Assembly (NCBI GenBank): GCA_014843695.1
Contig: CM026390.1
Span: forward strand, 20,561,236 to 20,625,235
Length of the DNA: 64,000 bases
DNA from: Archivesica marissinica
Lineage: Eukaryota > Mollusca > Bivalvia > Venerida > Vesicomyidae
Direction: 5' to 3'
Every line of letters starts with the position of its first letter. The first letter of the stretch is position 1. The position numbers and the translations under genes were made by a program. Under the pieces are notes generated by a model. That model saw only the letters and a list, made by a program, of their open reading frames with translations. It searched no databases and was not told where the DNA came from. Of this stretch, positions 11,201-53,200 are shown piece by piece.

Positions 11201-14200
11201 TAGCGCATTTATGAATTTTAATGATATATATATGGTGATAGAAATCCTGTCTTATAGGCGAGTAAGTATGGTAGCGCATTTATGAATTTTAATGATATAT
11301 ATATGGTGATAGAAATCCCGTCTTATAGGCGAGTAAGTATGATAGCGCATTTATGAATTTTATATATATAGGCATAAGCCAATCTTGGAATTACCATCGC
11401 CACGACGACATCGTCCAGCATTAACAAAAGTGGTCACTTTACCTCAATAAACAAGATTAGTGGCTTACAGAGACTAATAGGAAATTTGTTCAAAACATCT
11501 CCAAATTTATATATTACGCAAATTTAGCAAGAAATTAACAATTTTAGACACCACAACCATCTATGCTCTTCTGAAAATGTATCCATGCCTTTCCATTGTA
11601 CTTTGTTTATGTATTGTTTGCTATAAATATGTTATCATATTTAATGTAATAAATATATTGAATTGAATTGAATACCTGAGAAGTAACAGGAGTTATAAGT
11701 AAAGCAGATCCCCACATAAACTGCACATCAATCATGTATGTCACATTGTAGTCACTCACTGGATACCTGAAGTAGAACATTCACAATCAAGGGAAACAAC
11801 TCAAGATCAACAACAATAAAATACTCTTCATCCTGTTATTAGACTGTAAATGAGGATATATACCTCTGAAGACCAGACAGATACCACTGCCGTGAACACA
11901 AGCACCAAAAAAATAACTGTTGCACTTATGGTGGTGTCCTTATGCCAGACACTCTAATCCACATTGCCAACAGAGACTACATACTTACTGGAAGAACAAT
12001 GGTCTAACTACAGGTAAACCATCTACATGACTCCTGTAGAACAGGGTATACAGGTACAGAGACTACATACTTACTGGAAGAACAAGGGTCTAACTACAGG
12101 TAAACCATCTACATGACTCCTGTAGAACAGGGTATACAGGTACAGAGACTACATACTTACTGGAAGAACAAGGGTCTAACTACAGGTAAACCATCTACAT
12201 GACTCCTGTAGAACAGGGTATACAGGTACAGAGACTACATACTTACTGGAAGAACAAGGGTCTAACTACAGGTAAACCATCTACATGACTCCTGTAGAAC
12301 AGGGTATACAGGTACAGAGACTACATACTTACTGGAAGAACAAGGGTCTAACTACAGGTAAACCATCTACATGACTCCTGTAGAACAGGGTATACAGGTA
12401 CAGAGACTACATACTTACTGGAAGAACAAGGGTCTAACTACAGGTAAACCATCTACATGACTCCTGTAGAACAGGGTATACAAGTACAGAGACTACATAC
12501 TTACTGGAAGAACAATGGTCTAACTACAGGTAACCCATCTACATGACTCCTGTAGAACAGGGTATACAGGTACAGAGACTACATACTTACTGGAAGAACA
12601 ATGGTCTAACTACAGGTAACCCATCTACATGACTCCTGTAGAACAGGGTAAACAGGTACGGAGACTACATACTTACTGGAAGAACAATGGTCTAACTACA
12701 GGTAACCCATCTACATGACTCCTGTAGAACAGGGTATACAGGTACAGAGACTACATACTTACTGGAAGAACAAGGGTCTAACTACAGGTAACCCATCTAC
12801 ATGACTCCTGTAGAACAGGGTATACAGGTACAGAGACTACATACTTACTGGAAGAACAAGGGTCTAACTACAGGTAAACCGTCTACATGACTCCTGTAGA
12901 ACAGGGTATACAGGTACAGAGACTACATACTTACTGGAAGAACAAGGGTCTAACTACAGGTAACCCATCTACATGACTCCTGTAGAACAGTGTATACAGG
13001 TACGGCAACAAGGTATATCTCAGGTTGAGTGCATCCCTCATTATTTTCTGTGTTGCTGTATCAAAGAAAGCAGGATCCTGGTCCTGCAAATGATGTAACG
13101 TTACTGGTACATGATGTAAAGTTACTGGTACATGTACATGATGTAAAGTTACTGGTACATGATGTAAAGTTACTGGTACATGATGTAAAGTTACTGGTAC
13201 ATGTACATGATGTAAAGTTACTGGTACATGATGTAAAGTTACTGGTACATGATGTAAAGTTACTGGTACATGATGTAAAGTTACTGGTACATGATGTAAA
13301 GTTACTGGTACATGTACATGATGTAAAGTTACTGGTACATGATGTAAAGTTACTGGTACATGTACATGATGTAAAGTTACTGGTACATGATGTAAAGTTA
13401 TTGGTACATGTACATGATGTAAAGTTATTGGTACATGTACATGATGTAAAGTTACAGGTACATGATGTAAAGTTACAGGTACATGATGTAAAGTTACTGG
13501 TACATGATGTAAATTTATTGGTACATGTACATGATGTAAAGTTACAGGTACATGATGTAAAGTTACAGGTACATGATGTAAAGTTACTGGTACATGATGT
13601 AAAGTTACTGGTACATGTACATGATGTAAAGTTACAGGTACATGATGTAAAGTTACTGGTATATGATGTAAAGTTACTGGTACAAGATGTAAAGTTACTG
13701 GTACATGTACATGATGTAAAGTTATTGGTACATGTACATGATGTAAAGTTACTGGTACATGATGTAAAGTTACTGGTACATGTACATGATGTAAAGTTAC
13801 TGGTACATGTACATGATGTAAAGTTATTGGTACATGATGTAAAGTTATTGGTACATGTACATGATGTAAAGTTACTGGTACATGATGTAAAGTTACTGGT
13901 ACATGATGTAAAGTTACTGGTACATGATGTAAAGTTACTGGTACATGATGTAAAGTTACTGGTACATGATGTAAAGTTACTGGTACATGTACATGATGTA
14001 AAGTTACTGGTACATGATGTAAAGTTACTGGTACAAGATGTAAAGTTACTGGTACATGATGTAAAGTTACTGGTACATGATGTAAAGTTACTGGTACATG
14101 ATGTAAAGTTACTGGTACATGTACATGATGTAAAGTTACTGGTACATGATGTAAAGTTACTGGTACAAGATGTAAAGTTACTGGTACATGATGTAAAGTT

Positions 14201-50200: not shown

Positions 50201-53200
50201 TTACCGATGGTGGTTGGTCTCTGCTCCAAAATGCTAGTCTGGTCCAGTTAGTACTGACTAGAAATGCAGACCGGTGTTCACCGAGGCCGTATATGTACTG
50301 GGTGCTGAGCTGGGTACCAAGCTGGAGAAACTGGTCCGCAAACACGAGTGGTGAGGCATCCAGTGAATTGAACCTGTATGCAAACAATTGTGAATGTAAA
50401 TAGTATAGTTTGTACGGATTAATTTAATACTTTGCACGCTAGCTAGTGGCAGATAAAAAATCACTTTTGCAAACAGCATAGAACCAGATCAGACGGCACA
50501 GAACATGCCGTCTGATCAAGTTCTATGCTGTTTGCTATTCGGATAGTGGAACTAAAACACTTGGCTGAATAGCAAACAACATAGATCCTGATCAGACGCG
50601 GTGTTACACCGGTGTTACACATGTTTAAAGACCACATCTGATTAAAGGTCACCTCTGTTTAACGGTCACCTCTGATTAAAGGCCACATCTGATTATAGAC
50701 ACCTCTGATTAAAGACCACCTCTGACTAAAGACTACCTCTGATTGAAGACGGCCCACCTATTCATCTTCGATGAAGCCATTTTTAAAGTATTGTAACCTG
50801 TTTTTATTTACAGTACTTGTCCGGTAACTGGTCCTGTGTTGACCGGTTTAACTGTGCTTGTATTTGTATACTTACAGTACTTGTCCGGTAGATTGTCCGG
50901 TAACTGGTCCTGTGTTGACCGGTTTAACTGTGCTTGTATTTGTATACTTACAGTACTGGTCCGGTAGATTGTCCGGTAACTGGTCCTGTGTTGACCGGTT
51001 TAACTGTGCTTGTATTTGTATACTTACAGTACTTGTCCGGTAACTGGTCCTGTGTTGACCGGTTTAACTGTGCTTGTATTTGTATACTTACAGTATTTTT
51101 TCCGGTAGATTGTCTGGTAACTGGCCCTGTGTTGACTGGTTTAACTGTGCATGTATTTGTATACTTACAGTACATGTTCGGTAGATTGTCCGGTAACTGG
51201 CCCTGTGTTGACCGGTTTAACTGTGCTTGTATTTGTATACTTACAGTACATGTTCGGTAGATTGTCCGGTAATTGGCCCTGTGTTGACCAGTTTAACTGT
51301 GCTTGTATTTGTATACTTACAGTACATGTTCGGTAGATTGTCCGGTAACTGGTCCTGTGTTGACCGGTTTAACTGTGCTTGTATTTGTATACTTACAGTA
51401 CATGTTCGGTAGATTGTCCGGTAACTGGCCCTGTGTTGACCGGTTTAACTGTGCTTGTATTTGTATACTTACAGTACATGTTCGGTAATTGGCCCTGTGT
51501 TGACCGGTTTAACTGTGCTTGTATTTGTATACTTACAGTCCTTGTCCGGTAGATTGTCCGGTAACTGGTCCTGTGTTGACCGGTTTAACTATGCTTGTAT
51601 TTGTATACTTACAGTACTTGTCCGGTAGATTTTCTAGTCACCGTGATATAGAAGGCCCCCTGTGATGGTATATCTACAGCATACGCCGTATCTGCTGCCG
51701 TAACCGGGCCGTTGTTCCTTGACAACGTGATTGGCACCTCAAATCTTGCATTGTTTGGATCATAGAACTGCACAAATTAAAGACACATGTATATTACTAT
51801 TAGTGATGGGCAATCAGTTCCAATATCACATTCGATTACAAGTTATAATCGGGTCACCTTACCCATAAACCAACAGTAAAACATAAAATGGAAGTGCATA
51901 AAATTGTCGACCATTCATTAAACAATGGGGAAAACAGTTTGTAAAAATGTCGACCAATCATATTTATGCTGCACTGAATGAAGTGAATAATTCCAATATT
52001 CAAGGGAAGTAAGTCAGTATGGAATTAATGCAGAGGTTATCAAAATAATAATAAAAACACACTGAATGCATGTGATTGTGTATGTGATTAAACATCTATT
52101 TTAATAATATATACTAATAATTATCTATGTTCAAATATTGTGCAATAGTAATATGTGCACCTCCCCACTCCCCCCTCCCCCTCCCCACTGTTACCTCTTT
52201 GCAAGCTAGCAGTGAAAAAACATTCTAATATGTCATGCAATTTTATTAAGAAATTCCATGAGACATTTCTAGAGATTTCAGTAACAAATCCCAAAAAATA
52301 TATTAATGAATTATCGGCTGCTAAATTTTAAACTATTTATAGCATTTATTTTACCCAGCATGCAAAGAGTTAAGTAGATATTATTACATGCCGAGACTGC
52401 AAAATCCTGTACTCAAACTACCTTGAAGTTAAGTGTATCAGCTGTTTGAAAGTTCACATCCAGATTAAGCTGCTGGACATCGTTAGGCCACCCAGATGGC
52501 AGACTCAGTTGTAACTTGACCTTGATCCCCGTGTCTGACCTCTGAAGGCTCTGAACTGTGTAGCCCTTGTAATCAGTGGGGTAGAAACAAAATGGCACAC
52601 CTTCAGATCTGCAAACCAAAGAACATGCATAGGATAGCCACTATTTCTTGATTAAACCTATTAATTTAGAACTTTTATTTTCGCTCAATTGCGAAACCAA
52701 GTTTTTACAATCTTAGATTATTCGCTTTCGAGACCAAATTCCTCATGGAATCTATTGTCATGAGGGAGAGAGAAGAGCAGGCGCGTAGCTGCCATTAGGC
52801 CAAAAGGCCCGGGCCTGCACATCATTTTGACAAAAATACATAATATATATATAATTATTAGGGATGGCAACGAATGGTGATTGTGATATTCGAATATTCG
52901 GATGATCTTCCGAACGAATATTCGAATATTCGCAAATTTCTCCAACTTTCGATTTCCACTACAGTTAGTACCTGTAAAACAAATGCTTCTCAGTTTGTGT
53001 CCCGTCAAATAGACTGCATTAATCAATTAGTGACCCCTGTAAGTTGTGAACAACATGTCATCACCCTCCTTTGTTATTTGGAGCCAAATCGCGATGACAT
53101 TTCGCACCTTCGGGCACGCATTGGGTCATTCTTTGTTTTCGAAACTTAATTGATTGAAATATAAACAAACATATATATCCTTTTAAGTTATGATTTAACT

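What the first reader, a model, noticed from the sequence alone, without database searches (positions are those of the whole stretch)
11971..51767. Exon-edge satellites: at least five exons of one gene have tandem arrays built from their own splice-site-bearing edges
Exons 3, 6 and 14 have arrays that start at the donor and repeat it with part of the exon. Exon 9 has an array repeating its acceptor with the exon's first ~40 nt. Exon 12's interior is spread through a 5-kb array. Exons 17, 13 and 11 have arrays starting about 6, 30 and 30 nt after the donor, and the 13-15.7 kb array abuts the exon 14 acceptor. One exon-derived minisatellite could be chance; five in one gene suggests a process that preferentially duplicates exon-intron junctions. 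The coding exons themselves remain intact with consistent phases. I know of no named system of this kind. A functional role (decoy sites, U1 titration, splicing kinetics) is speculation; a mutational bias is the simpler explanation.
Basis: partly seen in the sequence, partly recalled or inferred. Interest (0 to 1): 0.92.

Follow-up and report, generated by a model that had tools for sequence, protein, structure and literature searches.

The report
Minisatellites copying splice junctions in clam gene
In one clam-type gene for a sugar-cutting enzyme, several introns are filled with tandem copies of the neighbouring exon's edge, splice signal included, a pattern already described in lancelets (and singly in a human gene) but here unusually dense and in a different animal group.

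Summary
The window carries an intact minus-strand GH31 alpha-glucosidase gene (17 modelled exons, e2-e18; closest named match Mercenaria, a bivalve). Four arrays repeat a real exon-intron junction: donors of e3 (10 exact decoy donors), e6 (189) and e14 (11), and the e9 acceptor (17 copies). A fifth, beside e12, repeats exon-12 interior without the donor; decayed exon-12-end copies lie at its far end. The e6 unit holds only 5-6 exonic nt. Four other near-junction arrays show no clear exon content.

Mutation plus tolerance is the best reading, but a name exists: 'mirages', reported in amphioxus Adh3, globin, TnC and PGBD5 genes; human CBS has a similar 31-bp VNTR. If array founders fell at random in this gene, 1.06 of 20 would span a junction; 4 do, 5 with e12 (nominal P 0.017 and 0.0025; the window was picked for this). 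Decoy sites are intact but no more conserved than other parts of the units, so there is no sign of function. The nearest decoys tested would bring a stop codon; cross-exon proximity would pick the real site. RNA and genome-wide tests could not be run.

The parts
2168..52608 (-). GH31 alpha-glucosidase gene (GAA/MGAM type), exons e2-e18; exon 1 and the 3' end are not modelled
   Evidence: splice model and open frame; PDB match; Pfam; homologues
51613..51767 (-). exon 3; donor GTAAGT begins at 51612
50817..51631 (-). e3 donor mirage: ~76-bp unit, about 19-22 exonic nt + donor + intron; 10 exact decoy donors
45183..45421 (-). exon 6; donor TAT|GTAAGT, intron begins at 45182
39561..45187 (-). e6 donor mirage: 28-bp unit x ~198, 5-6 exonic nt + donor; 189 exact decoy donor 9-mers
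33243..33356 (-). exon 9; acceptor TTTCAG|GTGTGG
33317..34337 (-). e9 acceptor mirage: 53-59-bp unit, acceptor tract + first ~40 exonic nt, 17 copies upstream of the real acceptor
24433..24569 (-). exon 12
19480..24408 (-). e12 degenerate array: 45/90-bp units; the 90-bp form contains exon-12 interior (nt 56-97); donor absent from the unit
   Evidence: the 45-bp unit alone is not significant
19354..19506 (-). two decayed copies of the exon-12 3' part at and past the far end of the array: copy A (19506-19453, ending in an exact 12-nt match to the exon end + GTAA) and copy B (19382-19354, 29 nt across the donor)
12935..13083 (-). exon 14; donor CCA|GTAAGT
11970..13003 (-). e14 donor mirage: 86-bp unit, about 70 exonic nt + donor + intron; 11 exact decoy donors; mean column divergence 1.3%
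13090..15735 (-). 21-bp array ending 6 nt from the e14 acceptor; exon origin not established (only 6 exonic nt can be aligned)
16503..18063 (-). 38-bp array starting 21 nt after the e13 donor; no exon content found
25217..26792 (-). 30/114-bp array starting 30 nt after the e11 donor; no exon content found
8012..8827 (-). 15-bp array starting 6 nt after the e17 donor (TRF rows 8012-8617 and 8772-8827 taken together); no exon content found

Best explanation
These are mirages: minisatellites founded by short tandem duplications that crossed an exon-intron junction, then grown and homogenised by slippage and unequal exchange. They persist because the outermost copy still forms a complete exon and splice site, so the rest of the array is intron. 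Splicing stays correct because, with long introns on both sides, exon definition pairs the splice sites closest across the exon, which is always the authentic copy; the nearest decoys would add a stop codon. In time some arrays lose the splice site (e12) and become ordinary giant intronic satellites. Shown: anatomy, copy counts, direction from conserved exon to array, stop-codon consequence of the decoys tested. Inferred: founding mechanism, splice choice in RNA, fate over time. A special junction-seeking process is possible but not needed; it overlaps with this explanation rather than excluding it.
For: Junction-spanning copies in register. The exons concerned encode sequence conserved in bivalve homologues (e.g. 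e14 77-95% identity in 8), so exon is the source and array the derivative. Arrays differ in age: mean column divergence 1.3% (e14), 4.4% (e6), 5.9% (e3), 6.8% (e9), and 75-88% identity to the exon in the best e12 hits, so births recurred. For e12, the 8 best of 157 comparison windows all lie in its own array, and an exact 12-nt exon-end + GTAA copy lies just past it. The first decoys of e3, e6 and e14 and the three nearest of 17 e9 decoys each put a stop in frame (only these were translated). Introns flanking e3, e6, e9 and e14 are 654-7421 nt, the exon-definition regime in which the sites closest across the exon are preferred (PMC9225289 abstract and passages). Same build, with regular splicing, reported in amphioxus (passages).
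Against: No RNA from this species was available, so correct splicing is inferred from the intact frame. The junction excess (4-5 seen, 1.06 expected) hints that random placement may not be the whole story. Many decoys carry the same 9-nt donor as the real site, so proximity must do all the work; this is unproven here. Recurrent birth and loss of the donor are read from one genome only.
Confidence: 0.78

Rival explanations
1. A junction-directed mutational process: something about exon edges (sequence motif, R-loop, co-transcriptional splicing, proto-splice-site microhomology) makes tandem duplication start there more often than elsewhere. This adds to the best explanation rather than excluding it.
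For: 4-5 junction-spanning arrays of 20 against 1.06 expected; 9 of 20 spanning or within 35 nt against 2.4 expected. Donor mirages sit on 3 of the 4 GTAAGT donors and 0 of 13 others (exploratory Fisher P=0.006; 0.022 if e12 is added).
Against: One gene, chosen because of the pattern; 11 of 20 arrays lie more than 35 nt from junctions, and at least one of these is built from a dispersed repeat (32158-32934). Four near-junction arrays show no clear exon sequence.
Confidence: 0.3
2. Functional decoys: the extra splice sites slow, buffer or titrate splicing (U1 capture) and are kept by selection.
For: About 210 GTAAGT copies sit in three introns (10, 190 and 11), and the donor hexamer columns show 0-0.6% divergence. 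In the rest of the introns donor-like motifs are scarce on the sense strand: GTRAGT 3 against 9.1 in shuffles, GTAAGT 1 against 4.9.
Against: 14-65% of 6-nt windows in the same units are as conserved, so homogenisation suffices. The scarcity outside arrays is not clearly strand-specific: antisense counts are 3 for GTRAGT, 3 for GTAAGT (sense 1) and 2 for AGGTRAG (sense 0), too few to tell.
Confidence: 0.05
3. Assembly artefact: the arrays were created or inflated by misassembly.
For: No reads could be inspected; one amphioxus mirage (BflGb6 haplotype 1) is said to be aberrantly assembled in the genome draft (PMC3087553 passage).
Against: Copies differ from each other, unit lengths and flanks differ for each array, and exon frames stay intact. 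Copy number could still be wrong.
Confidence: 0.05
4. Intermediate of intron gain: mirage copies are on the way to becoming new exons or introns, as proposed for amphioxus globins.
For: The model is in print (PMC3087553 passages), and tandem duplication as an intron source is discussed elsewhere (search listing only).
Against: No extra exon is needed: 13 of 16 junctions align gap-free with all 8 homologues, and the exceptions (e10/e11, e16/e17, e17/e18) are not at mirage junctions. The nearest copies contain stops when read through. Intron positions of relatives were not compared.
Confidence: 0.07

Closest known systems
Amphioxus mirages (Adh3, globins BflGb6 and BflGb9, TnC, PGBD5; PMC3087553, PMC3902484)
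   Same: Tandem minisatellite-like copies spanning an exon-intron boundary, donor or acceptor side; splice signals within many copies; authentic edge intact; unit lengths in the same range (Adh3 10-72 bp, globins 150-160 bp; here 28-86 bp)
   Different: Host is a bivalve, not a cephalochordate; 4 clear cases plus 1 degenerate in a single gene; up to ~198 units in one array, against 3-6 in BflGb6. RNA and length instability, reported there, are untested here.
Human CBS 31-bp VNTR, c.1444_1467+7(16_21) (PMC2630376)
   Same: By its numbering, unit = end of exon + donor + a few intronic nt; 16-21 copies
   Different: One array in one gene; copy number is known to vary among people. Effects on CBS activity and homocysteine were seen only as a table entry and reference titles.
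Ordinary intronic minisatellites in molluscs (e.g. abalone TSSK1-like intron 3, 27-bp unit; PMC6905558 passages)
   Same: Large tandem array in a mollusc intron
   Different: The passages seen do not report exon or splice-site sequence in it; I did not compare it with its exons

Membership tests
Mirage (exon-intron boundary minisatellite) | Tandem repeat unit spans an exon-intron boundary and carries the splice signal | tested here: met
   e3, e6, e14 donors and e9 acceptor; e6 with only 5-6 exonic nt
Mirage (exon-intron boundary minisatellite) | Same feature, for the e12 array | tested here: inconclusive
   Unit holds exon interior but no donor; two decayed donor-bearing copies lie at and past the array's far end; 45-bp unit P=0.11
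Mirage (exon-intron boundary minisatellite) | Same feature, for the e14 acceptor array | tested here: inconclusive
   16 BLAST hits cross the acceptor but reach only 6 exonic nt; the four printed align at 86% over 37 columns with one gap; exon-only match no better than shuffled units (73% do as well)
Mirage (exon-intron boundary minisatellite) | Authentic exon edge intact beside the array | tested here: met
   Open frame over 17 exons; homologues gap-free at the copied junctions
Mirage (exon-intron boundary minisatellite) | Regular splicing not disturbed (suggested by RT-PCR in amphioxus) | not testable with these tools
   No RNA from this species
Mirage (exon-intron boundary minisatellite) | Length instability between haplotypes or in soma | not testable with these tools
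   One haplotype in the window
Mirage (exon-intron boundary minisatellite) | Homogenisation among copies (concerted evolution) | tested here: met
   Mean column divergence 1.3-6.8% within the four arrays
Intron gain by tandem duplication | A duplicated AGGT inside an exon now bounds a new intron | tested here: inconclusive
   Copies lie within introns and the model needs no extra exon, but intron positions of relatives were not compared

The most novel reading that the evidence does not exclude
In this bivalve lineage exon-intron junctions are a preferred birthplace of minisatellites genome-wide, and mirages are the seeds from which many giant intronic satellites grow after losing their splice site (e12 being caught in transition), so that intron length is partly built from exon edges. 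The spliceosome copes with up to about 190 exact donor copies through cross-exon proximity alone.
Probability: 0.25. Interest if true: 0.78.

Novelty: new member of a known kind. Interest (0 to 1): 0.52.

Why it matters
Among the papers I opened from 10 literature searches (open-licence PubMed Central only, listings capped), the term mirage for such repeats appears only for amphioxus; here is a bivalve gene with several at once. It is also a natural experiment on splice-site choice: 10 to 189 exact copies of a donor, or 17 copies of an acceptor, compete in one transcript, and in the cases translated only the exon-proximal copy keeps the frame. Long-read RNA could test the cross-exon proximity rule directly. 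If junction overlap proves general, it would tie exon edges to minisatellite birth and intron growth.

Tried and rejected
Not accepted: e14 acceptor array as exon-derived. Sixteen BLAST hits cross the acceptor, but each reaches only 6 nt into the exon, and the exon-only match is 5 nt, which 73% of shuffled units equal; it cannot be excluded either. Rejected: exon content in the e11, e13 and e17 arrays. Rejected: purging or special retention of decoys; strand-specific depletion of donor motifs elsewhere could not be shown. The link between GTAAGT donors and donor mirages was looked for after the fact and rests on 17 donors. A by-eye reading of 2-3 nt microhomology at array ends was not tested. 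Founder-placement test: 20 arrays merged by hand from the 63 TRF rows; dropped were rows outside the modelled gene span and the 46632-46661 low-complexity row; one period per array (90 for e12, 114 for e11; shorter ones in a variant). The unit test used 18 units, leaving out two short arrays (9745-9801 and 48731-48781).

Led nowhere: searches aimed at molluscs, bivalves or venerids (no paper; 41: 7 listed, none opened; 55: 12 of 53 listed, 3 of them opened) gave no mirage report outside amphioxus in what I saw; other papers listed with the word 'mirages' were not opened. The window's genome could not be searched.
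Full report
What was checked. The minus strand of the window carries a GH31 alpha-glucosidase gene of the GAA/MGAM type. The product matches lysosomal alpha-glucosidase and maltase-glucoamylase structures along nearly its whole length, has three GH31 domains, and is closest, among named hits, to Mercenaria mercenaria (81%), Mactra antiquata (72%) and Dreissena polymorpha (70%), so the host is very probably a heterodont bivalve (inference). 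In an alignment with 8 homologues, 13 of 16 junctions are gap-free in all 8; at e10/e11 the model is 2 aa shorter than all 8, and e16/e17 and e17/e18 differ in one homologue each.

The arrays. TRF gives 63 rows in the window; I merged them by hand into 20 arrays within the gene span. Introns 17 (98%), 13 (84%), 14 (83%), 6 (81%), 12 (80%), 3 (74%) and 11 (70%) are mostly array; four introns have none.

Four arrays repeat a junction. At e3 the unit is about 76 bp with about 19-22 exonic nt; at e14 86 bp with about 70 exonic nt; at e6 28 bp with 5-6 exonic nt; at e9 53-59 bp with the acceptor tract and about 40 exonic nt. BLAST finds 11, 11, 180 and 17 junction-spanning copies respectively. The authentic donor 9-mer occurs exactly 10 (e3), 189 (e6) and 11 (e14) times in its own intron and never in other introns; the remaining 13 of 16 donors have no copy in their own intron or others. 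The e9 acceptor 12-mer occurs 10 times upstream and a shorter 9-mer 17 times; the other 15 of 16 acceptors have none. Comparing 18 array units with 17 exons, only the e14, e9 and e3 units exceed all 200 shuffles, and each picks its own neighbouring exon; the e6 unit does not stand out by exon content.

Exon 12. The 45-bp unit beside it is not significant (P=0.11). A stretch of the 90-bp form in the same array, chosen by eye, matches exon-12 nt 56-97 at 33 of 42 positions (0 of 1000 shuffles), and the 8 best of 157 comparison windows for exon 12 all lie inside this array. At the array's far end copy A matches the interior (0 of 1000 shuffles; this match straddles the array edge) and then, just past the array, 12 of 12 nt of the exon end plus GTAA (0 of 1000 shuffles); copy B matches 29 nt across the donor (0 of 1000 shuffles). 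The simplest reading is an old mirage whose amplified unit has lost its donor.

Other near-junction arrays. Those near e11, e13 and e17 show no exon content. The e14 acceptor array stays open: 16 BLAST hits cross the acceptor but reach only 6 exonic nt, and the exon part alone is not better than shuffled units.

Is it more than chance? If each array began as one unit placed at random in the array-collapsed gene, where only purely intronic or single-junction placements are tolerated, 1.06 of 20 arrays would cross a junction with at least 5 exonic and 6 intronic nt. Four do (P=0.017), five with e12 (P=0.0025); across six variants P ranges from 0.0002 to 0.034 (the at-least-15-exonic-nt variant counts e3, e9, e14 and e12). 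Nine of 20 cross or come within 35 nt, expected 2.4 (P=0.0002). The uncollapsed null is harsher (P=0.0008 for four), but I prefer the collapsed one. The window was flagged for this very pattern, so these values are nominal. They point to a modest excess, not to a proven targeting process.

Function. Divergence at the donor GT is 0-0.3% while whole units average 1.3-5.9% for the three donor arrays; yet 14-65% of 6-nt windows in the same units are as conserved as the donor hexamer (the 14% is e6). So there is no clear sign of purging or of special retention. In non-array intron sequence GTRAGT is scarce (3 against 9.1 in shuffles) on both strands (antisense 3); GTAAGT is 1 sense and 3 antisense, AGGTRAG 0 and 2, counts too small to show a strand effect.

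How splicing can work. Reading on to the first decoy of e3, e6 or e14 meets a stop codon, and each of the three nearest of 17 e9 decoys gives a stop (other decoys were not translated). The modelled site is in all four cases the one closest to the partner across the exon. Flanking introns of these exons are 654-7421 nt. In a survey of alternative sites and in minigenes, sites between long introns are chosen by proximity across the exon (PMC9225289, abstract and passages). The anatomy fits that rule; RNA proof is missing.

What is known. Tandem repeats spanning exon-intron boundaries are called mirages in amphioxus: Adh3, globins, TnC, with similar repeats in PGBD5. The globin paper says they do not seem to disturb splicing, show length instability, may seed new introns, and that one was aberrantly assembled in the draft genome (PMC3087553 and PMC3902484, passages read; the original Adh3 paper was not seen). 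The human CBS VNTR c.1444_1467+7(16_21) is a 31-bp repeat that by its numbering crosses a donor (PMC2630376 passages). So this is a new member of a known kind; in what I saw of ten literature searches there was no such report from a bivalve, but listings were capped and most papers were not opened.

Verdict. Observation confirmed with qualifications; interpretation partly supported. Most likely recurrent small duplications, tolerated when they leave the outer copy intact, and amplified as minisatellites. The density in one gene and the very large number of exact decoy donors are the surprising parts.

Noticed in passing
window 12931-15768, minus strand: The 21-bp array before exon 14 is open in the exon-14 frame for about 2.7 kb, giving a 945-aa ORF of a repeated 7-residue unit running into the exon; several frames are open, so this is probably trivial.
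   Followed up: no
window 32158-32934: The 18-bp array is built from a piece of a dispersed repeat; copies also at 707, 29334, 30102, 31642 and 61659 (first five listed).
   Followed up: partly
window 11162-11370: The 71-bp array has a relative of part of its unit at 61125-61168 and 10549-10574.
   Followed up: no
window 55747-56895, plus strand; 54608-54976, plus strand: ORFs with DDE_Tnp_4/HTH_Tnp_4 and THAP domains, perhaps one DNA transposon.
   Followed up: partly
window 46934-47006 (+), 48136-48208 (-), 28459-28531 (-): Three tRNA-family matches above threshold (39, 31.3 and 30.3 bits against 29), possibly SINE-derived.
   Followed up: no
window 2316-7973: A 25-bp array of about 235 copies fills most of intron 17 and ends 98 nt before the exon-18 acceptor; no exon similarity.
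   Followed up: partly
window 26823-30394: The modelled e10/e11 junction lacks 2 aa present in all 8 aligned homologues; a real deletion or a slightly wrong acceptor.
   Followed up: no
window 16503-18063, minus strand: The sense strand of this 38-bp array (41 copies by TRF) repeats an acceptor-like stretch, a pyrimidine-rich run followed by ACAG, although it shows no exon content; copies were not counted.
   Followed up: no
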